Below, in pieces: positions 55,099 to 64,000 of a DNA stretch of 64,000 nucleotides; the stretch's first letter is position 1, and each line of letters begins with the position of its first letter. The translations under genes and the position numbers were made by a program. This DNA comes from Halostagnicola sp. A-GB9-2 (GTDB taxonomy: Archaea; Halobacteriota; Halobacteria; Halobacteriales; Natrialbaceae). The stretch is from the NCBI RefSeq assembly GCF_030068615.1, contig NZ_JASJOC010000003.1:248001-312000 (forward strand), given 5' to 3'. Below the pieces are notes generated by a model. That model was given only the letters and a program-made list of their open reading frames with translations, ran no database searches and was not told the origin of the DNA.

Positions 55099-56418
55099 AT
55101 GCGACTCTGGCAGGATCCGCTCCGACGCCGCTGGTTACTTTGGGGCACGCTCGGCGTAACCTTCCTCCTGGTCAACGTCAACCGACTCTCCTCTGCGGTG
55201 TTAGCCGAAGATCTCATGGTCGCCTTCGGAACCTCTGGGGCGCAACTCGGGACGCTCCATGCTGTCTTCTTCTGGGTTTATGCGTTCATGCAGATCCCGA
55301 CGGGGATTCTCGCGGACCGCGTCGGCCCGCGACTTACGGCGGCCGCCGGCGGGGTGGTAATGAACGTCGGCGCAATCTGGTTTGCGCTCGCTGACAGCTA
55401 CCTCGCGGCCGGCGTCGCCCGCGGGCTCGTCGGCCTCGGTGGGAGCGTCATCTTCGTCTGCATCCTCCGATTCTGTGCGAACTGGTTCCGCGCTGACGAG
55501 TTCGCGACGGTGAGCGGCCTGAGCTTCGCGGTCTCCGGCGTCGGGGGCGTACTCGCGACGACGCCGCTCGCAGTCGCCGTCGACGCGACCGGCTGGCGCG
55601 CCTCGATCGGCTGGCTCGGTGTTCTCGGGCTCCTCTGTGCCGTCGCCGTGTTCGTCTTCGTGCGGGATACGCCCGAGGCGGCCGGTTTCCAACAGATCGA
55701 CGGCGTTCCGGGTCAGTCGACGCTCACGAACGCCGAACTTCGAACCCATCTCTCGGCCATCCTCCGGGACCGCTGGATCTGGGTCGTGAGCATCATGCTG
55801 TTCTGTGCGAACGGCGTCAATCTCACCATCTTCGGACTGTGGGGCGTTCCCTACGTCGTGCAACTGTACGACGTCTCGGTGACCTACGCCTCGGTGTTCA
55901 CCCTGCTCGGCGGTCTCGGCGTGATGGTCGGCCCGCCCGCGTTCGGCTGGCTTTCGGACCGCCTCGAGCGCCGCGTCGAGTTGATGATCGGTGGCGGAGC
56001 CTGTTTCGCGATCACGCTCGCGGTGATCGCCGTTGCCGGCGATCCGCCGCTCCCTGTCGTCGGCATCGCTTTCTTCCTCACCGGAGTGTTGTTCGGCTCG
56101 TTCCTGCTCGGGTACGCGATCGTCAAGGACAGGCATCCCAGCAGCGCGAGCGGCATCTCGACGGGGACGATAAACGGCGCGTCGTTCTTCGGCGCCGCGA
56201 TGCTCCCGACGGTGATGGGTTGGGCGCTCGACGCCTACTGGACGGGAGAACTCGTCGGCGGCGTCCGGGTCTACACGGAGACCGGCTACCAGCTAGCCTT
56301 CGGAATCGCAACCGTCGCTGGAGTGATCGCCTTCGCGTGTACCGTCTGGCTGTTCGTCAACACCGATCGCTCGAGCCCAAACCCTCACTCACGACAGGAT
56401 CGCTCGAGCGGCGAATAA
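55099..56418 (+). CDS. MFS transporter
   Basis: 439 residues with 12 predicted helices. MFS loop 2-3 signature is TGILADRVGPRLTAAAG, and the second-half equivalent FGWLSDRLERRVELM. ISTGTINGASFFGAAMLPTVMGW is near the end of the last helices. The substrate cannot be told from sequence; its neighbours handle proline, so an amino-acid or organic-acid substrate is possible. ATG 55099 (MRLWQDPLRRRWLLWG) is the start. Its 3' end overlaps proline dehydrogenase by 30 bases. Confidence 0.88.
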   Translation: MRLWQDPLRRRWLLWGTLGVTFLLVNVNRLSSAVLAEDLMVAFGTSGAQLGTLHAVFFWVYAFMQIPTGILADRVGPRLTAAAGGVVMNVGAIWFALADSYLAAGVARGLVGLGGSVIFVCILRFCANWFRADEFATVSGLSFAVSGVGGVLATTPLAVAVDATGWRASIGWLGVLGLLCAVAVFVFVRDTPEAAGFQQIDGVPGQSTLTNAELRTHLSAILRDRWIWVVSIMLFCANGVNLTIFGLWGVPYVVQLYDVSVTYASVFTLLGGLGVMVGPPAFGWLSDRLERRVELMIGGGACFAITLAVIAVAGDPPLPVVGIAFFLTGVLFGSFLLGYAIVKDRHPSSASGISTGTINGASFFGAAMLPTVMGWALDAYWTGELVGGVRVYTETGYQLAFGIATVAGVIAFACTVWLFVNTDRSSPNPHSRQDRSSGE

Positions 56419-57354
56419 CAGGTTCTCCTTGCGCTCGCGGACTCGCCGGTAGAAGTACAACAACCAGCGAGAACCGTAGGGAACGTACTGATAGACGGTC
56501 ACGCCCTCGGCCGCCAGCTCGCGCTGGGCGTCCTCCCGAACGCCCATCAGCATCTGGACTTCGTAGGGCGTTCCGTACTCCTCGTGGAGTTCTCGAGCGT
56601 ACGCGATCATCGCCGGGTCGTGGCTTCCGACCGCGATGCCGCCGTCGCGGTTCTGGAAGGCGTCCTCGAGCAGGGTTCGGTACGCCTTGTCGACCCGGTC
56701 TTTGTCCTTGTAGGCGATCGATTTCGGCTCATCATAGGCTCCCTTGACGAGCCGGACCTTGCCGGGAACGTCGTTCAGCCGCTCGAGATCCTCACGCGTG
56801 CGTTTCAGGTTCGCCTGCAGACAGAGTCCGACGGCTCCTTCGACGGCCGCTCGGTTTTCGAGCGCCACATCGTCTTCGAGCGCTACTCCTTCGGAGCCCG
56901 TTCCGCCTTCGACGGTTTCGACAACCTCGAGCTCCGCTGATTCCATCGATTCGGCCGTCTCCACAGAGGCGTACTCTCGAGCGAGCCGTTCGTAGGCCTC
57001 GAGCGTCGCGTCCGTCGTCGTGTGGTTTTCCATGTCTACCCAAACGAAAACGTCTCGTTCGGCCGCGTGGGAGACGATCCGCTCGAGGTTCGATTCGAAC
57101 GCTTCCGGTCCGATATCGAGGCCGATCTGCGATGGTTTGACCGAGATACAGACGTCGAAGCCCGACATCGCAATCGACTCGACGAGCGAGCAGTACGCGT
57201 CGGTATCGTCGGCGACTACGTCGGGGTCGTCGTGGTGTTCGCCAAGCAAATTGAGGATCGCCCCGACGCCGTCGTCGTTGAGCTGTTGGACGTGCTCGAG
57301 CGCTTCGGGTGGCGACTCGCCGGCGACGAACCGACTGGCGATCGGTGGAATCAT
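56389..57354 (-). CDS. proline dehydrogenase
   Basis: 321 residues, stand-alone PRODH. It oxidises proline to P5C with FAD. Conserved features: the start MIPPIASRFVAGESPPEALE, CISVKPSQIGLDIGPEAF, VFVWVDMENHTTTDATLEAY, LCLQANLKRTREDLERL, VRLVKGAYDEPKSIAYKDK, AVGSHDPAMIAYARELH and YEVQMLMGVREDAQRELA, ending in the helix 8 YVPYGSRWLLYFYRRVRERKEN with the substrate-binding Arg residues. An acidic insertion (about 128-165) between two strands is not in bacterial enzymes. Confidence 0.94.
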   Translation of the reverse strand: MIPPIASRFVAGESPPEALEHVQQLNDDGVGAILNLLGEHHDDPDVVADDTDAYCSLVESIAMSGFDVCISVKPSQIGLDIGPEAFESNLERIVSHAAERDVFVWVDMENHTTTDATLEAYERLAREYASVETAESMESAELEVVETVEGGTGSEGVALEDDVALENRAAVEGAVGLCLQANLKRTREDLERLNDVPGKVRLVKGAYDEPKSIAYKDKDRVDKAYRTLLEDAFQNRDGGIAVGSHDPAMIAYARELHEEYGTPYEVQMLMGVREDAQRELAAEGVTVYQYVPYGSRWLLYFYRRVRERKENLLFAARAILS

Positions 57355-57458
57355 CTAGTCGGATCTAGAAAGCGGGGACTCTTAACCACAACACCGACCA
57401 AATAATTCAATAACATCTTACAGAAATTATCGTGTCCAATAGGCGATTTCTCGGACGG

Positions 57459-58211
57459 TCACAGCGGATCGGTCACTTCCTCGATAGCCGGGTCGAGTAG
57501 CTTCGCCTCGGCCTTCCGGAGGTGTTCGAGCAACGTCGTTTTCGAAACGTCCGCCTTTTCTGCGAGCTCTCGAGTCGTAATCTCTCGCGGCCAGGCGTAG
57601 TAGTTGTGTTCGCACGCGAGCTCGAAGATTTCGCGCTGGCGCGTCGAAAGCAGGGCAACGCGGCCAGGGCTTTCGTCGCTGAACGCGTCGTTCGTGGTGA
57701 TTTTCGTGACCGTAATCTCGGCCGACCCCTTCTCCCTGACGGCCTCGAGGCGCTCGTGAAGTCGGTCGCGATCGGTGTCGCCGACGAAGACGGACCAGAA
57801 TTCGGTGCCGTCGCGGATCCGGACCGCCGATTCCTGGATGAATCCCTCCGACGCGAGCGCGTCGCTGATCGTGTGGGTCGGGTCGTACTCGACGAACAGC
57901 TCGCGTGCGGTGTTGCCCGGAACGGACTTTGCCTCGTCGAACCCGTACCGACGTTGCATCACGACGACGGAGTCCGTCAGTCGCGAGTTTCGGGTCTCCT
58001 GAATCAATTCGTTTGTTTCCTCGAGCGAGTCTCCGTACGCCGTGAAGTGTCCCTTGACCCGGCCGTCGGTCGCGTTGTAGACGGTGTGTGCGAGAAGACT
58101 GGCGTCGGTCGCCTCCGTTACCTCGAGCGTCCAGCAGTCCGGATGCCAGATCTCGAGTGTGAGACGAGCACCCCCCGTTGGATAGTCGTCCGTTATCTCT
58201 GTCGTCGCCAT
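57459..58211 (-). CDS. HTH-10 (Bat-type) transcriptional regulator
   Basis: 250 residues. Residues 1-190 are the bacterio-opsin-activator-type ligand domain (GGARLTLEIWHPDCWTLEVTE, followed by GHFTAYGDSLEETNELI). The C-terminal HTH_10 is LLSTRQREIFELACEHNYYAWPREITTRELAEKADVSKTTLLEHLRKAEAKLL (read in parts): a helix-turn-helix that binds DNA. It sits between the proline dehydrogenase gene and the divergent aldehyde dehydrogenase gene, so it very likely controls proline catabolism, sensing proline or P5C. That link is inference from position. Confidence 0.9.
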   Translation of the reverse strand: MATTEITDDYPTGGARLTLEIWHPDCWTLEVTEATDASLLAHTVYNATDGRVKGHFTAYGDSLEETNELIQETRNSRLTDSVVVMQRRYGFDEAKSVPGNTARELFVEYDPTHTISDALASEGFIQESAVRIRDGTEFWSVFVGDTDRDRLHERLEAVREKGSAEITVTKITTNDAFSDESPGRVALLSTRQREIFELACEHNYYAWPREITTRELAEKADVSKTTLLEHLRKAEAKLLDPAIEEVTDPL

Positions 58212-58233
58212 TGTCAGCTAGTATCACACACTC

Positions 58234-58241
58234 GTTTAAAC
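58234..58241. promoter_or_regulatory. palindromic AT core between regulator and ALDH genes
   Basis: GTTTAAAC lies in the 87-base divergent spacer, 23-30 bases upstream of the regulator start at 58211. It serves as a TATA element for that gene and, being palindromic, might be an operator. Confidence 0.35.
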
Positions 58242-58298
58242 CTCTGTCCCGACCATGGGAGGGGAGCCTACTATTCTTCGGAGGAACGATGAATATCC

Positions 58299-59879
58299 AT
58301 GGCTCAACAATCTGCCGACGACGTGTACAACCACTACATTGCGGGCGGGTGGTCCGACGGCGACGGAGGAGAAACGTTCGAGAGCGAGAACCCGGCTACG
58401 GGAGAGGCGCTCGCGACGTTCGAACGGGGGACCGAGTCGGATGTCGACGCCGCACTGGAGGCGGCCGATGAGGCCGCCGAGGAGTGGCGAGCACTCTCCT
58501 ACATCGACCGGGCGGAGTACCTCTGGGACATCTATCACGAACTGCGCGAGCGGACGGACGAACTCGGCGAAATCGTCACGAAAGAGTGTGGCAAGGAGAT
58601 CTCTGAGGGGCGAGCCGATGTCATCGAAGCCTATCACATGGTCGAGTGGGCCGCCGCCAACGCCCGCCATCCCCACGGCGACGTCGTTCCCAGCGAAATC
58701 GCCTCGAAGGACGCCTACATGCGTCGAAAGCCCCGGGGTATCGTCGGCTGTATCACCCCCTGGAACTTCCCCGTCGCGATCCCCTTCTGGCACATGGCCA
58801 TCGCGCTGGTCGAGGGGAACACGATCGTCTGGAAACCCGCCGAACAGACCCCATGGTGCGGCCAGATCATCGCCGAGATGTTCGAGGACGCGGGCATCCC
58901 CGACGGCGTCTTCAACATGGTACAGGGCTTCGGCGACGCCGGCGCGGCCATCACGGACGACGAGCGCGTCGATACCGTCCTCTTTACCGGCTCAGCGGAG
59001 GTCGGCCACGAGATCGCCGGCAAGGTCGGTGCCGAACCCGGCAAACTCGCGGCCTGCGAGATGGGCGGCAAAAACGGGATCATCATCGCTGAGGACGCCG
59101 ACATGGACATCGCGATCCACTCGGCGATCATGTCGAGTTTCAAGACGACCGGCCAGCGCTGCGTCTCGAGCGAGCGCCTGATCGTTCACGAGGAGATCTA
59201 CGACGAGTTCAAAGACCGCTTCGTCGAGGTCGCAAAGAGTATCTCGGTCGGCGACCCGCTGGCCGAAGAGACCTTTATGGGTCCCGCCATCGAATCCCAG
59301 CACGTCGAAAAGATCGCGAAACACAACGAACTGGCCCGACAGGAAGGAGCCGAGGTGCTCGTCGATCGCTTCGAACTCGAGGACGAGGAGATACCCGACG
59401 GACATGAAGAGGGGGCGGCTACTGCCGCCGATGGTGAACGAAGCGGGAGCTTCGCGAACGGTCATTGGGTCGGCCCGTTCGTCTACGAACTCGAGTACGA
59501 CTCCGACCTGCGGTGTCTACAAGAGGAGTGTTTCGGCCCGCACGTCGCCCTGATCGAATACTCGGGCGATATCGATCGAGCGCTCGAGATTCACAACGAC
59601 ACGAATTACGGGCTCGCCGGGGCGATCGTCAGCGAGGATTACCGGAAGATTCACCGCTTTCGCGACGACGGCGAGGTCGGACTGGCCTACGCGAACCTGC
59701 CGTGTATCGGCGCGGAAGTCCACCTCCCCTTCGGCGGCGTGAAGAAGTCGGGGAACGGCTATCCGAGCGCTCGAGAGGCCATCGAGGCCGTCACCGAACG
59801 GACCGCGTTCACGCTCAACAACTCGAAAGAGATCGAGATGGCACAGGGGCTCTCGGCGGATATCCTGACCGATGACTGA
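58299..59879 (+). CDS. aldehyde dehydrogenase, P5C dehydrogenase-like
   Basis: 526 residues. ALDH superfamily with catalytic Cys288 in TTGQRCVSSERL and Glu254 in ACEMGGKNG; Asn156 in TPWNFPVAIP and Lys179 in VWKPAEQTPW. Subfamily layout resembles L-glutamate gamma-semialdehyde dehydrogenases, which make glutamate from proline-derived P5C with NAD. A low-complexity insertion (about 365-385, PDGHEEGAATAADGERSG) sits before the FGP loop. It completes the pathway begun by proline dehydrogenase across the regulator. Confidence 0.92.
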   Translation: MAQQSADDVYNHYIAGGWSDGDGGETFESENPATGEALATFERGTESDVDAALEAADEAAEEWRALSYIDRAEYLWDIYHELRERTDELGEIVTKECGKEISEGRADVIEAYHMVEWAAANARHPHGDVVPSEIASKDAYMRRKPRGIVGCITPWNFPVAIPFWHMAIALVEGNTIVWKPAEQTPWCGQIIAEMFEDAGIPDGVFNMVQGFGDAGAAITDDERVDTVLFTGSAEVGHEIAGKVGAEPGKLAACEMGGKNGIIIAEDADMDIAIHSAIMSSFKTTGQRCVSSERLIVHEEIYDEFKDRFVEVAKSISVGDPLAEETFMGPAIESQHVEKIAKHNELARQEGAEVLVDRFELEDEEIPDGHEEGAATAADGERSGSFANGHWVGPFVYELEYDSDLRCLQEECFGPHVALIEYSGDIDRALEIHNDTNYGLAGAIVSEDYRKIHRFRDDGEVGLAYANLPCIGAEVHLPFGGVKKSGNGYPSAREAIEAVTERTAFTLNNSKEIEMAQGLSADILTDD

Positions 59880-59949: not shown

Positions 59950-61515
59950 TCAGTACTCGTTGTCGCGCAGCCGGTCGACTTCGTCCTCGATCTCCTTTGC
60001 GAGTTCGGCCTGCTGTTCGTTGGCCCTCGCGATCTGTTCGCTTGCAGCGGAGATTTCTTCGGCTTTCCCCATCGAGGAGTCGGTCATGCTGGCGACTTCC
60101 TCGGTACTCGCGGCCTGATCGTCCGTGGCGTCGGCGACCTCCTGAATGCCCGTCGTGGCCTCTCGAACCGAGTTTTCGATCCGATTCAGGTCCTCGACCG
60201 CGTCCTCGACGAGATCGACCGCATCGTCCGTCTCCGTTCCCGCCCGATCGATGCTTTCGACGGTGTTTTCGGTATCTTTCTGAATCTGATCGACCATCTG
60301 CTCGATGTTCTTGGCCTCCTCCTGAGACTCTTCGGCGAGGGACTTGACCTCGTCGGCGACGACGGCGAAACTGTCCCCGGCTTCGCCCGCGGTCGCCGCT
60401 TCAATCGACGCGTTGACCGCCAGCAGATTCGTCTGGTCCGCGATCGTGTTGATGACTTTGACGATCTCGTCGATGCGCTCAACTCGCTCCCTGAGCTTCT
60501 CGACGTCGTCCGAAACCTCCGCCGCGGCCGCCTCGAGGCTCTCCATCTTCTCGAGGGCGTCTTCGGCGGTATCGGAGGCGTTGTCGGCGATGTCCTTTGC
60601 GGTCTCGCTCGTCGAGCTGACCTCCTCCGCGTTCGAGGCGATCTCCTCGACGGTGGCCGAGAGACTCGAGACTTCGCCTGAAACCTGCGACATCGATTCG
60701 ACCTGGTCCTCGGCGAGCTGACCGACTTCGTTCGACTGTGCCACGGCGCTGTCGGCCGAATCACGGAGTTCTGAAACCCTCTCCTCGACACTTTCGGTCA
60801 CTCGTTCTCGCCGCTCGAGTTCCTCCTCGATATCCGCATAGGAGTGAATGTACGTGTCCATAACGACCTGCTGGTCGAGGTTGATAAGTTTGAGCGCCGA
60901 GAGCGCTCGGTCGACGACCTCGTCGACGGCGTCGTCAACCGCCTCCTGAGCCTCGCTCGCGGTGAGCATCGGTTCATCGTGCTGTGTCCCCGCGGCGGTC
61001 GTGGCGCCGTCCGGGACCGAATCCGAATCGGCTTCGGACAGCTCCGGTCGCTCTTTCGCTTCGGTACCGATTTCGCCGAGAATCCCCTCGTAGTAGATCG
61101 AATACGCCCCCAGATAGATTTCCGGACCGAGATCGAGCATATCGTGAAGCTTCCCGATCTTGGCACGCCGGTCGACGTACTCTTTGCCGTACTCTCCTCG
61201 GCCGAGGTCTCTGAGATACTCCGCCTGCGTTCGTTTGAGGCTCTCGACCTGCTTGCTCGAGGAGTCTATTATCGCGACCGTCTCCTCGTGAGACTGCAGA
61301 TGCGCGTAGAATTCGTCGACGAGATCGTCCGCAATATCGTCGAACAGGCCCGACATCGACTCGAGGCGGGCGGCGTCCTCCCGATCGAACCGCGTGTACT
61401 CTTTTCGCCACTCGATTCGGTCCGCGTCGATGTCGAGTTCCGCAGTCAACTGCGACCCGATTACGTTCCTCCTGTCTCCATCAGAGATTTTATACTCGCT
61501 CCCATCGCCGGTCAT
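59950..61515 (-). CDS. hemAT: globin-coupled transducer (HemAT type), heme His present
   Basis: 521 residues, soluble methyl-accepting protein. Residues about 30-160 are a globin sensor: [19 protein letters not shown], then [29 protein letters not shown] with the proximal heme His124. A linker (about 165-200) is acidic. The signalling part carries [41 protein letters not shown] and [17 protein letters not shown]. HemAT proteins bind oxygen and drive aerotaxis via CheA. A TATA element TTTATATA at 61544-61552 lies upstream. The next transducer is 120 bases upstream. Confidence 0.93.
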
Positions 61516-61543: not shown

Positions 61544-61552
61544 TATATAAAT
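61544..61552 (-). promoter_or_regulatory. TATA box of hemAT
   Basis: ATTTATATA on the minus strand, centred about 33 bases upstream of ATG 61515, gives a leader of about 7 nt. Confidence 0.5.
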
Positions 61553-61635: not shown

Positions 61636-63105
61636 TCAGACGTCCTCTGTTAGCCGTTTTGCCTCCGCTTCGATATCGTCCATAAGTTCGAACTGCTCGT
61701 CCGCGATACCGGAGATCTCCTCGGATTTCGAGGATACTTCTTCAGTCTGACGATTTGCCTCTTCTGTCATACTTGCAACCTCCTCGATGCTCGCCGCCTG
61801 ATCGTCCGTCGCCTCCGCGACCTGATTGATCCCTTCGGACGTATCGCTCACCAGATCCTCGATCTGCGAGAGATTATCGACCGTCTCCTGGACTCGCCGA
61901 ACGCTCTCGTCGAGTTCTTCTATTGCCGTTTCGAGGCTCGTTGCGGTGTGTTCGGTATCCTGCTGGATCTGGTTTACCGTCCGCTCGATATTCTTCGCCT
62001 CCTCTTTCGAATTTTCGGCCAGGGACTTCACTTCGTTCGCGACGACGGCGAATCTGTCTCCCGTCTGGCCGCTATCTGCGGCTTCGATGGATGCGTTGAC
62101 GGCCAGGAGGTTCGTCTGGTCGGCGATGTCGTTGATTACCTCGACGACCTCGTCGATCTCTTCGACCCCCTCTCGCAGGGCTTCGACGTCTTTTGAGACC
62201 TGCTCCGTCGCTTGCTCGACGCTTTCCATGCTCTCGATCGCCTGTTCGCCGTTCTCGAGGGAATCCTCGACGAACTCGGCGCTCTCGGCGCTCGTCGAAC
62301 TAACCTCTTGTGCGTTCGAGGCGACCTCCTCGACGGTCGCAGAGACCGTCGAGACCTCGCTTGTGACCGTCGAGATCGATTCGGACTGGTTCGTGGTCAT
62401 GGAATCGATCTCGGTGGTCGCCTCCTGGACCGCTTCAGTTGCGTCTCGGAGTTCCGCGATCATTTCCTGAGTGTTCTGGGCGATCGATTCGCGACGTTCG
62501 ATATCCTCCTCGAGGTTGGCGTAGGACTTGATGTACTGGTCGACCGCGACCTGCTGGTCTAAGTTCAGTAACTTCCCCATCGATACGATCCGCTGGACCA
62601 TCGTTTCGACACCGTCTTGGACGGCACCAGCAGCAACGTCGGCATCGGGATCCGCGTTCGCGACACCGATCTCCTCGAGCACATCGGTTGCGATTCCTTC
62701 GACCAGTGCCTCGAAGTACACTGTGTAGGCTCCGATGACGATACTCGGCTCGACTCCCATTTGCTCGTAGCGCTCACCGGCCTTCGCCCGCTCCTCGTAA
62801 TACTGCTGACCGTACGATGCGGCCGCCATCTCGTCCACGTAGCCGTCTGTTTGCTGTCGAAGTCTCTCGGCGCCGGCCGAGTCGATGGTTCCCATCTCGA
62901 TCGAGTGATCTGCGAGGGTTTGGGAGATGCGGTCGGACTCCGATCGGATAACCGACGAAATTTCCTCGAGTCGTTTTCGATCGCTCTCGTCGAATCGCGT
63001 GAACTCCTTTTGCCACGCCAGCGATTGGCCCCCGATGCCGAGTTTATCGAGTTGGTCCACCCCGGCCACAGTCCCGCCATCTGTTTGATATGAATCCTCG
63101 TTCAT
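61636..63105 (-). CDS. globin-coupled-like transducer, heme His replaced by Tyr
   Basis: 489 residues, soluble, paralogue of the neighbouring hemAT. The globin-like sensor (about 25-150) keeps WQKEFTRFDESDRKRLEE and the loop-helix ERAKAGERYEQMGVEPSIVIGAYTVYFEAL, but the position of the proximal heme histidine is Tyr113 (codon at 62767-62769). The signalling domain is intact: [21 protein letters not shown] and FAVVANEVKSLAENSKEEA. It may sense something other than oxygen or bind heme differently. It lies between the cheA fragment and hemAT on the same strand. Confidence 0.9.
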   Translation of the reverse strand: MNEDSYQTDGGTVAGVDQLDKLGIGGQSLAWQKEFTRFDESDRKRLEEISSVIRSESDRISQTLADHSIEMGTIDSAGAERLRQQTDGYVDEMAAASYGQQYYEERAKAGERYEQMGVEPSIVIGAYTVYFEALVEGIATDVLEEIGVANADPDADVAAGAVQDGVETMVQRIVSMGKLLNLDQQVAVDQYIKSYANLEEDIERRESIAQNTQEMIAELRDATEAVQEATTEIDSMTTNQSESISTVTSEVSTVSATVEEVASNAQEVSSTSAESAEFVEDSLENGEQAIESMESVEQATEQVSKDVEALREGVEEIDEVVEVINDIADQTNLLAVNASIEAADSGQTGDRFAVVANEVKSLAENSKEEAKNIERTVNQIQQDTEHTATSLETAIEELDESVRRVQETVDNLSQIEDLVSDTSEGINQVAEATDDQAASIEEVASMTEEANRQTEEVSSKSEEISGIADEQFELMDDIEAEAKRLTEDV

Positions 63106-63264
63106 GTGGGTAGTAATTGGTATATTTCCTCGCTATCGGGGTTTAGGTTTACTGGCCCCTAGCACGCTCGAGCGCCGTGCTCGTTCGCACACGGCGCTCC
63201 GAGAATTTGCACTGGGTTCCAAAAAACCGGGTCGCTCGAGAGTATCGCTTCCGTGACGAATCGG

Positions 63265-64000
63265 CTACAACGATTCGACGTCGAGGATCATCACGACATC
63301 GCCTTCCCCGAGGACGGACGCGCCGCTGATCCCCTCGGTGCTACTGAGCGAGCCGTGGAACGGTTTGATGACGACTTCCTCCTGGCCGTTCATCCCGTCA
63401 CATCGCAGTGCAACTTTTCGGATGCCGTCTTTGACCCGAACGATCAGGTCGTCGTCTTGCTTTTCGGTTTCCGGGACGTTGAGGGACTCGCCGAGATCGA
63501 TAATCGGGTAGGTCTTCGAATCGTGGCTGAGGATCTTCGAGTCGTCGAACGACTGAATGTCCAGATCAGAGATGACGGAGATGTCGTCGACGTTCTTGAT
63601 CGGGATTCCGTACGCTTCCTCGCCCGTTTCGATGAACAGCACCCGTTCGATTGCGACGCTGACGGGCAGGGTTAGCGTGACACACGTCCCCTCTCCGGGC
63701 TCGCTCTCGACGTCGATATCGCCGTCGACGCTTTGAACGACGCGATTGACGACGTCCATCCCCACGCCGCGGCCGCTGATATCGGTCACCTCGTCGTTCG
63801 TCGAGAACCCCGGATGGAAAATTAGCTCGTAGACCTCCGAGCGCTCGAGCGACTGGACTTTCGCGGGGCTCATCACGTCCTTTTCGATGGCTTTCTTGCG
63901 AAGTCGCTCCGGATCAAGACCCGCTCCGTCGTCTTCGATCGCCAGCGTCACCGTATCTCGTTCGCGCGTTCCGCGAAGCTCGATGGTCCCCCCTCTCGAT
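63265..64000 (-). CDS. cheA: chemotaxis histidine kinase CheA, C-terminal part
   Basis: About 244 residues; the frame continues past the right edge, so the start, phosphotransfer and dimerisation domains are missing. The kinase ATP lid and G-boxes are DDGAGLDPERLRKKAIEKD, IFHPGFSTNDEVTDISGRG and VGMDVVNRVVQSVDG; PGEGTCVTLTLPVSVAIERVL leads into the CheW-like domain (YGIPIKNVDDISVISD; VIDLGESLNV-like IIDLGESLNV; GEGDVVMILDVESL end). It phosphorylates CheY and CheB under control of the transducers downstream. Confidence 0.95.
   Translation of the reverse strand, partial: SRGGTIELRGTRERDTVTLAIEDDGAGLDPERLRKKAIEKDVMSPAKVQSLERSEVYELIFHPGFSTNDEVTDISGRGVGMDVVNRVVQSVDGDIDVESEPGEGTCVTLTLPVSVAIERVLFIETGEEAYGIPIKNVDDISVISDLDIQSFDDSKILSHDSKTYPIIDLGESLNVPETEKQDDDLIVRVKDGIRKVALRCDGMNGQEEVVIKPFHGSLSSTEGISGASVLGEGDVVMILDVESL

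What the first reader, a model, noticed from the sequence alone, without database searches (positions are those of the whole stretch)
61636..63105. HemAT-like transducer with tyrosine in place of the proximal heme histidine
The two tandem transducers align through their globin-type sensors. The first has [11 protein letters not shown], the second RAKAGERYEQM, at the helix F position; the histidine that binds heme iron in HemAT is Tyr113 here (codon TAC on the minus strand at 62767-62769). The rest of the fold and the signalling tip look intact and under selection. This suggests a sensor that either binds heme through tyrosine, binds another ligand, or is a heme-free partner of the adjacent HemAT. 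A haloarchaeal locus with a functional and a ligand-switched globin transducer side by side would be a new sensory arrangement.
Basis: partly seen in the sequence, partly recalled or inferred. Interest (0 to 1): 0.65.

Follow-up and report, generated by a model that had tools for sequence, protein, structure and literature searches.

The report
Haem-site-lacking sister of HemAT chemoreceptor
Next to a normal oxygen-sensing chemotaxis receptor (HemAT), this salt-loving archaeon makes a second receptor with the same globin fold that has lost every recognised residue used to hold haem and oxygen; it is conserved across the genus, related archaea have similar pairs, and it is more likely a haem-free partner sensor than a tyrosine-haem protein.

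Summary
ORF 61636-63105(-) is an intact 489-aa protoglobin + MCP-signal protein, and the residue aligned with HemAT's proximal histidine is Tyr113. It is not decay: three other Halostagnicola genomes carry the same Tyr (TAC) beside a His-type HemAT, and the sensor evolves at dN/dS 0.20-0.29, like its HemAT neighbour. The Tyr type was found only in Halostagnicola. The tyrosine is not an isolated ligand swap. The distal Tyr (B10 -> Ala) and Thr (E11 -> Gln), the Tyr equivalent to HemAT-Bs Tyr133 (-> Val) and the C helix are gone too, while the dimer/output helices and signalling tip are kept. A census of 131 haloarchaeal globin sensors found a second, widespread non-His group (Asp/Gly/Ala/Glu/Pro). 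In eight other Natrialbaceae genomes one of these also sits directly beside a His-type HemAT. The side-by-side arrangement is therefore recurrent, and the proximal residue is free to vary. Best reading: a haem-free globin chemoreceptor, analogous to Gram-positive RsbR, feeding the same CheA as HemAT. Ferric haem bound by Tyr113 is not excluded, since the F helix is among the most constrained parts, but is less likely. No spectra or binding data exist, and I found no description of these pairs in the open-access papers searched.

The parts
61636..63105 (-). Tyr-type globin chemoreceptor gene (489 aa, soluble: no transmembrane stretch evident by eye)
   Evidence: orthologues
62515..63042 (-). 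protoglobin-type sensor, residues 22-197
   Evidence: Pfam PF11563; His-only profile 131 bits; AF2 pLDDT 90.8; Foldseek best hits HemAT-Bs 1or6 and AfGcHK 5ohe
62761..62808 (-). helix F, residues 100-115
   Evidence: AF2 secondary structure; residues 98-119 are 82% invariant among four species
62767..62769 (-). Tyr113 (TAC) at the proximal haem-ligand (F8 His) position
62911..62913 (-). Ala65 at the distal Tyr (B10, HemAT-Bs Tyr70) position
62902..62907 (-). site of the 6-residue deletion (H67/S68) that removes the C helix present in the neighbour HemAT
   Evidence: alignments; AF2 helices of the two sensors
62851..62853 (-). Gln85 at the distal Thr (E11, HemAT-Bs Thr95) position
62737..62739 (-). 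Val123 at the position of HemAT-Bs Tyr133
   Evidence: Tyr in 92 of 107 His-type sensors
61750..62250 (-). MCP signalling domain, residues 286-452, with intact tip [17 protein letters not shown]
   Evidence: PF00015; dN/dS 0.05-0.08
59950..61515 (-). neighbouring HemAT (521 aa) with proximal His124 (codon 61144-61146), distal Tyr70 and Thr96
61544..61551 (-). TATA-box-like TTTATATA about 30 bases before the HemAT start: HemAT probably has its own promoter
   Evidence: sequence read directly; inference
63170..63199 (-). 10-bp perfect inverted repeat (GAGCGCCGTG/CACGGCGCTC) after cheA, terminator-like: the Tyr gene is probably its own unit
   Evidence: sequence read directly; inference
63265..63999 (-). 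cheA, part inside the window (663 aa in all, continues past the window's end)
   Evidence: Hpt, P2, H-kinase_dim, HATPase_c, CheW domains

Best explanation
This is a soluble chemoreceptor whose protoglobin sensor no longer binds haem in the HemAT way and most likely binds none. SHOWN by sequence: the fold, the MCP output domain and the neighbouring cheA are intact; the proximal His, the distal Tyr/Thr, the Tyr133 equivalent and the C helix are lost together; all are lost in every Halostagnicola orthologue; the gene is under purifying selection. INFERRED: the sensor dimerises through its N-terminal and H helices as HemAT does. A small non-gas molecule, or a physical change, acts on the remodelled B-E-F-G pocket and moves the G/H bundle. 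The coiled coil passes this to the tip, which controls the adjacent CheA. Because its dimer/output helices stay close to HemAT's, it probably works in the same array as HemAT, as a co-receptor or possible heterodimer, adding a non-oxygen input to aerotaxis.
For: Coupled loss: of 107 His-type sensors 98 keep distal Tyr and 82 keep Thr/Ser at E11; of 24 non-His sensors 5 keep the Tyr and none has Thr/Ser. Loss is concentrated in the pocket: identity to the neighbour HemAT is 0.16 in helices B and E but 0.49 in the N-terminal helices and 0.52 in helix H, and the conserved W, K, F, D, R, G, Y, D, Q residues outside the pocket are kept. The proximal residue is free to vary: D 8, G 5, A 4, Y 4, E 2, P 1. 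A non-His type sits beside a His-type HemAT in eight genomes, and three of these loci were examined and lie in che clusters. Function kept: sensor dN/dS 0.20-0.29 and output 0.05-0.08. Fold kept: AF2 pLDDT 90.8, Foldseek TM 0.79-0.83 to HemAT and AfGcHK. Precedents: Gram-positive RsbR sensors lack the same proximal His and distal Tyr and are regarded as non-haem globins (PMC4976288); HemAT-Bs senses ethanol with its globin domain without using the haem (PMC7542364); His-to-Ala at this site in an Agrobacterium HemAT-like receptor abolishes aerotaxis but not CheW binding (PMC10851874).
Against: No spectra or binding data. Tyr at F8 can hold ferric haem (known from Hb M variants and myoglobin H93Y; my own knowledge), and Tyr113 sits in one of the most invariant parts of this sensor, which suggests that a ligand of some kind is still bound there. 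The signal and the pairing with HemAT are inferred only. The two non-His groups may go back to one or two losses, so they are not many independent witnesses.
Confidence: 0.68

Rival explanations
1. Tyr113 ligates ferric haem (tyrosinate haem, as in Hb M variants), making a redox, haem or NO/peroxide sensor next to the oxygen sensor HemAT.
For: Tyr is invariant (TAC) in four species, sits at F8 in a confidently modelled helix F, and the F region is among the most constrained parts of the sensor.
Against: Distal Tyr and Thr, the Tyr133 equivalent and the C helix that would cover the distal side are all gone. Other non-His sensors, including ones in the same position beside HemAT, have Gly, Ala, Glu or Asp there. 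Most of helix F is invariant, so Tyr is not singled out.
Confidence: 0.12
2. The sensor domain is an inert structural spacer: the protein is a constitutive member of the receptor array that tunes gain or methylation, with no ligand of its own.
For: Output domain far more constrained than the sensor (dN/dS 0.05-0.08 against 0.20-0.29). Dimer/output helices are the parts kept relative to HemAT. In three other Natrialbaceae the tip of the non-His receptor is nearest to that of its own or a sister tandem HemAT.
Against: The Tyr-type pocket helices F and G are as constrained between species as those of HemAT, which a spacer would not need.
Confidence: 0.13
3. The gene is a decaying duplicate of HemAT.
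For: Long branch of the Tyr clade in the sensor tree (2.1 changes per site). In Halostagnicola sp. A56 the gene is split between contigs.
Against: Intact in G000, G001 and G003, with purifying selection over the whole gene. The A56 break falls inside rpoA1, which points to a chimaeric assembly rather than decay.
Confidence: 0.04
4. Haem binds but through another residue or site (for example H67 or a dimer-interface site).
For: H67 is invariant in the four orthologues. One bacterial globin sensor structure carries haem at the dimer interface (4uiq, listed).
Against: H67 aligns with an ordinary family His at the end of helix B. The other candidate, His130, is present in three orthologues but is Tyr in this protein.
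Confidence: 0.03

Closest known systems
HemAT (globin-coupled aerotaxis transducer; Halobacterium salinarum Htr10, B. subtilis HemAT, PDB 1or4/1or6)
   Same: Protoglobin-type sensor joined to a soluble MCP signalling domain; conserved N-terminal, G and H helices; nearest solved fold
   Different: Lacks proximal His, distal Tyr and Thr, the Tyr133 equivalent and the C helix, so it is not expected to bind oxygen at haem as HemAT does
Non-haem sensor globins of Gram-positive RsbR (stressosome)
   Same: Globin fold sensor that lost the proximal His and distal Tyr, used in signalling without haem (PMC4976288)
   Different: RsbR has a STAS output in the stressosome; here the output is an MCP tip next to cheA. 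No sequence relationship to RsbR closer than to HemAT was tested
Natrialbaceae D/G/A/E-type globin MCPs (L029, L033, L100-L102, L139 and others)
   Same: HemAT-like MCPs without proximal His or E11 Thr/Ser; members lie beside a His-type HemAT in eight genomes, three of them shown to be in che clusters
   Different: Separate clade with full support in the sensor tree; keep the Tyr133 equivalent; one common origin with the Tyr type is not rejected (p 0.49)
Hb M / myoglobin H93Y (tyrosine-ligated ferric globins; own knowledge)
   Same: Tyr at F8
   Different: Those keep an otherwise normal haem pocket; here the distal side is dismantled

Membership tests
HemAT / globin-coupled sensor MCP | Protoglobin-fold N-terminal sensor | tested here: met
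   PF11563 67 bits; AF2 and Foldseek
HemAT / globin-coupled sensor MCP | C-terminal MCP signalling domain with intact tip | tested here: met
   PF00015 130 bits; tip under strong purifying selection
HemAT / globin-coupled sensor MCP | Proximal histidine (F8) for haem | tested here: not met
   Tyr113 in all orthologues
HemAT / globin-coupled sensor MCP | Distal Tyr (B10) and Thr/Ser (E11) that hold bound oxygen | tested here: not met
   Ala65 and Gln85
HemAT / globin-coupled sensor MCP | Binds haem and oxygen | not testable with these tools
   Needs purified protein and UV-visible spectra
Non-haem sensor globin (RsbR-like) | Globin fold kept, proximal His and distal Tyr absent, under selection | tested here: met
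Non-haem sensor globin (RsbR-like) | Shown to purify without haem | not testable with these tools
   Experiment required
Non-haem sensor globin (RsbR-like) | STAS output domain / stressosome partners | tested here: not met
   Output is MCPsignal; neighbours are che genes
Tyrosine-ligated haem globin | Tyr at F8 in helix F facing the pocket | tested here: inconclusive
   Position in helix F is met; side-chain direction could not be examined
Tyrosine-ligated haem globin | Haem pocket otherwise kept | tested here: not met
   Distal residues, C helix, and the Ile120-to-Ala and Tyr134-to-Val changes (HemAT numbering of the window's neighbour)

The most novel reading that the evidence does not exclude
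Tyr113 is a true haem ligand, so the locus pairs an Fe(II)-oxygen HemAT with a natural Fe(III)-tyrosinate globin receptor that reports redox state or free haem into the same CheA, possibly through HemAT heterodimers.
Probability: 0.1. Interest if true: 0.75.

Novelty: new variant of a known kind. Interest (0 to 1): 0.42.

Why it matters
Protoglobin domains on archaeal chemoreceptors are commonly taken as haem oxygen sensors (for example PMC9680633). Here 24 of 131 sampled haloarchaeal globin sensors lack the iron ligand, and in several genera one sits directly beside a normal HemAT. If they are haem-free, automatic annotation as aerotaxis receptors is wrong for this group, and the pairs give a natural system for asking what a globin sensor does without haem, and whether a haem-free sister changes how its oxygen-sensing neighbour signals.

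Tried and rejected
Simple decay: rejected by four orthologues and dN/dS. A better alignment with a His at F8: three methods agree there is none. H67 as alternative ligand: it aligns with an ordinary family His. Tyr type elsewhere: a 391-genome class search gives 378-384 bits in Halostagnicola and 118 bits next; a whole-collection scan found only Halostagnicola plus a 33% hit; plasmids give at most 32% identity. One or several losses of His: the tree separates the Tyr and D/G/A/E groups, but AU tests reject neither their union (p 0.49) nor union of the Tyr clade with its own HemAT (p 0.62), so the origin stays open. Direct PDB search of the Tyr sensor by sequence is too weak to use alone (E 0.08). 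Paper searches for a tyrosine-proximal globin sensor or a non-His haloarchaeal HemAT found none. One census script read the wrong column because its reference row lacked the motif; it was corrected and its output not used.

Full report
Observation. The reported gene is real and exactly placed: window 61636-63105 on the minus strand, 489 aa, with a Protoglobin domain (67 bits) and an MCP signalling domain (130 bits). Its neighbour at 59950-61515(-) is a HemAT of 521 aa with Protoglobin at 105 bits; the two are 45% identical over 496 columns. The helix F strings are as reported, [11 protein letters not shown] and RAKAGERYEQM. Tyr113 (TAC, 62767-62769) aligns with the proximal His by pairwise BLASTP, by MAFFT of the family, and by a profile built from His-type sensors only, which also aligns the B. 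subtilis HemAT stretch. The only other His in the sensor, H67, falls on a common family His at the end of helix B.

Where it lies. A 12.5 kb locus from Halostagnicola sp. A56 (L037) carries the nearest named relative, so the window is from Halostagnicola or very near it. Reading past the window's end, the minus strand runs cheA - Tyr receptor - HemAT, with ParA-like, CheW-like, CheB, CheW and CheD genes close by. On the other side are an aldehyde dehydrogenase, an HTH_10 regulator and a proline dehydrogenase. The order cheA - Tyr receptor - HemAT - ALDH - proline dehydrogenase is conserved in G001 and G003.

Is it decaying? No. Three more Halostagnicola genomes have the orthologue, always with TAC at this codon and with a His-type HemAT next to it. 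Pairwise NG86 dN/dS is 0.20-0.29 for the Tyr sensor and 0.05-0.08 for its output domain. For the HemAT neighbours it is 0.20-0.32 and 0.06-0.14. These are rough estimates from four genomes. G002, placed in the same genus, has cheA and a HemAT but no Tyr receptor. In A56 the gene is split: contig 14 has cheA plus codons 1-54, and contig 15 has codons 15-488 joined inside the RNA polymerase A' gene. Since that gene is essential, I take this as an assembly chimaera, but did not prove it.

What changed besides the histidine. In 107 His-type sensors from these loci, 98 keep the distal Tyr and 82 have Thr or Ser at E11. The Tyr receptor has Ala65 and Gln85 there, and Val123 where 92 of 107 have the Tyr equivalent to HemAT-Bs Tyr133. 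A six-residue deletion removes the C helix: AF2 shows helices at 77-85 and 90-103 in HemAT, but a single step from helix B (57-70) to E (76-94) in the Tyr sensor. By contrast W31, K33, F35, F38, D42, L46, Y98, R106, G110, Y127, D183, Q185 and Y191 are kept. Identity between the two neighbours is 0.49 in the N-terminal helices and 0.52 in helix H, but 0.16 in B and in E, and about a third in F and G. The haem side was rebuilt; the dimer and output side was not.

Fold. The AF2 model of the Tyr sensor has pLDDT 90.8 and pTM 0.86. Its best PDB matches are the haem sensor globins HemAT-Bs (1or6, TM 0.79 by target length) and AfGcHK (5ohe, TM up to 0.83). The HemAT neighbour gives the same set with somewhat better scores. 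The model is apo and coordinates could not be inspected, so side-chain directions are not tested.

A wider pattern. Of 131 distinct globin sensors collected (a family-weighted, not random, sample), 24 lack the proximal His: Asp 8, Gly 5, Ala 4, Tyr 4, Glu 2, Pro 1. None of the 24 has Thr or Ser at E11, and 5 keep the distal Tyr. Apart from the Tyr clade, those placed in the tree form one group of Natrialbaceae receptors (members found later, were not put in that tree). In G029, G032, G050, G361, G292, G265, G228 and G371 a match to the profile of this group lies 2-3 kb from a His-type HemAT; the proximal residue was read in seven of the eight tandem members (Gly, Ala or Glu; the G292 tandem member was located by profile only). 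The G029, G032 and G050 loci were read in full and lie in che clusters with the same kinds of neighbours. In these the signalling tip of the non-His receptor is nearest to that of a tandem HemAT of the same pair or of the sister genome, as gene conversion or recent duplication would give. The Tyr type itself was found only in Halostagnicola: 378-384 bits against 118 for the next hit in 391 genomes of the class. The sensor tree separates the Tyr and other non-His groups, but an AU test does not reject their union, so one or two losses of His remain possible.

Interpretation. A proximal residue that can be Tyr, Gly, Ala, Asp or Glu in receptors of the same kind, together with loss of the distal oxygen-holding residues, speaks for absence of haem rather than for a new ligand. 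The closest functional precedent is RsbR of Gram-positive bacteria, whose sensor globins lack the same residues and are regarded as non-haem (PMC4976288). That a globin receptor can sense something without its haem is shown for ethanol and HemAT of B. subtilis (PMC7542364). Mutating this His in an Agrobacterium receptor abolished aerotaxis but left CheW binding (PMC10851874). The sensor is not simply idle: helices F and G are as constrained between species as those of HemAT. Against a firm verdict, Tyr can ligate ferric haem in mutant globins (own knowledge), and no spectra exist. The signal sensed and any heterodimer with HemAT are inference.

Verdict. Observation confirmed; interpretation partly supported. 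New variant of a known kind: a conserved globin chemoreceptor that fails the haem and oxygen tests for HemAT, in a side-by-side arrangement with HemAT that recurs in Natrialbaceae. I found no earlier description in the open-access literature searched, which leaves out most subscription papers.

Noticed in passing
L100:10576-12255(-), L101:8214-9857(+), L102:10746-12473(-) and coordinates: Tandem pairs of a non-His globin MCP (Gly, Ala or Glu where read) and a His-type HemAT in eight other Natrialbaceae genomes; the G029 (Gly) sensor is so diverged that Pfam Protoglobin no longer detects it at E 1e-5.
   Followed up: partly
L100, L101, L102 signalling domains: The tip of the non-His receptor is closest to that of a tandem HemAT of the same pair or of the sister genome, suggesting gene conversion or recent duplication between neighbours.
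   Followed up: partly
L037:3938-7425 and L039:3823-6162: In Halostagnicola sp. A56 the Tyr receptor is split over two contigs and joined inside rpoA1; a further fragment (residues 349-488) lies on G004:C18:158779-159198. Probably an assembly chimaera.
   Followed up: partly
window 62515-63042 against 61750-62250: Synonymous divergence of the Tyr sensor region (dS 0.25-0.45) is lower than that of its own output domain in most species pairs (0.36-0.97); not explained.
   Followed up: no
window 56389-59879: Proline dehydrogenase, an HTH_10 regulator and an aldehyde dehydrogenase next to the receptor pair: a probable proline-use cluster. The two enzyme genes beside HemAT are kept in three other Halostagnicola genomes.
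   Followed up: no
L005:5659-7532(+): A ParA/MinD-like ATPase and a 325-aa protein with a C-terminal CheW domain inside the che cluster, perhaps for array positioning.
   Followed up: no
G000:C33:317081-317224 (L003): Weak third protoglobin match (22 bits) in a 125-aa open frame; not examined.
   Followed up: no
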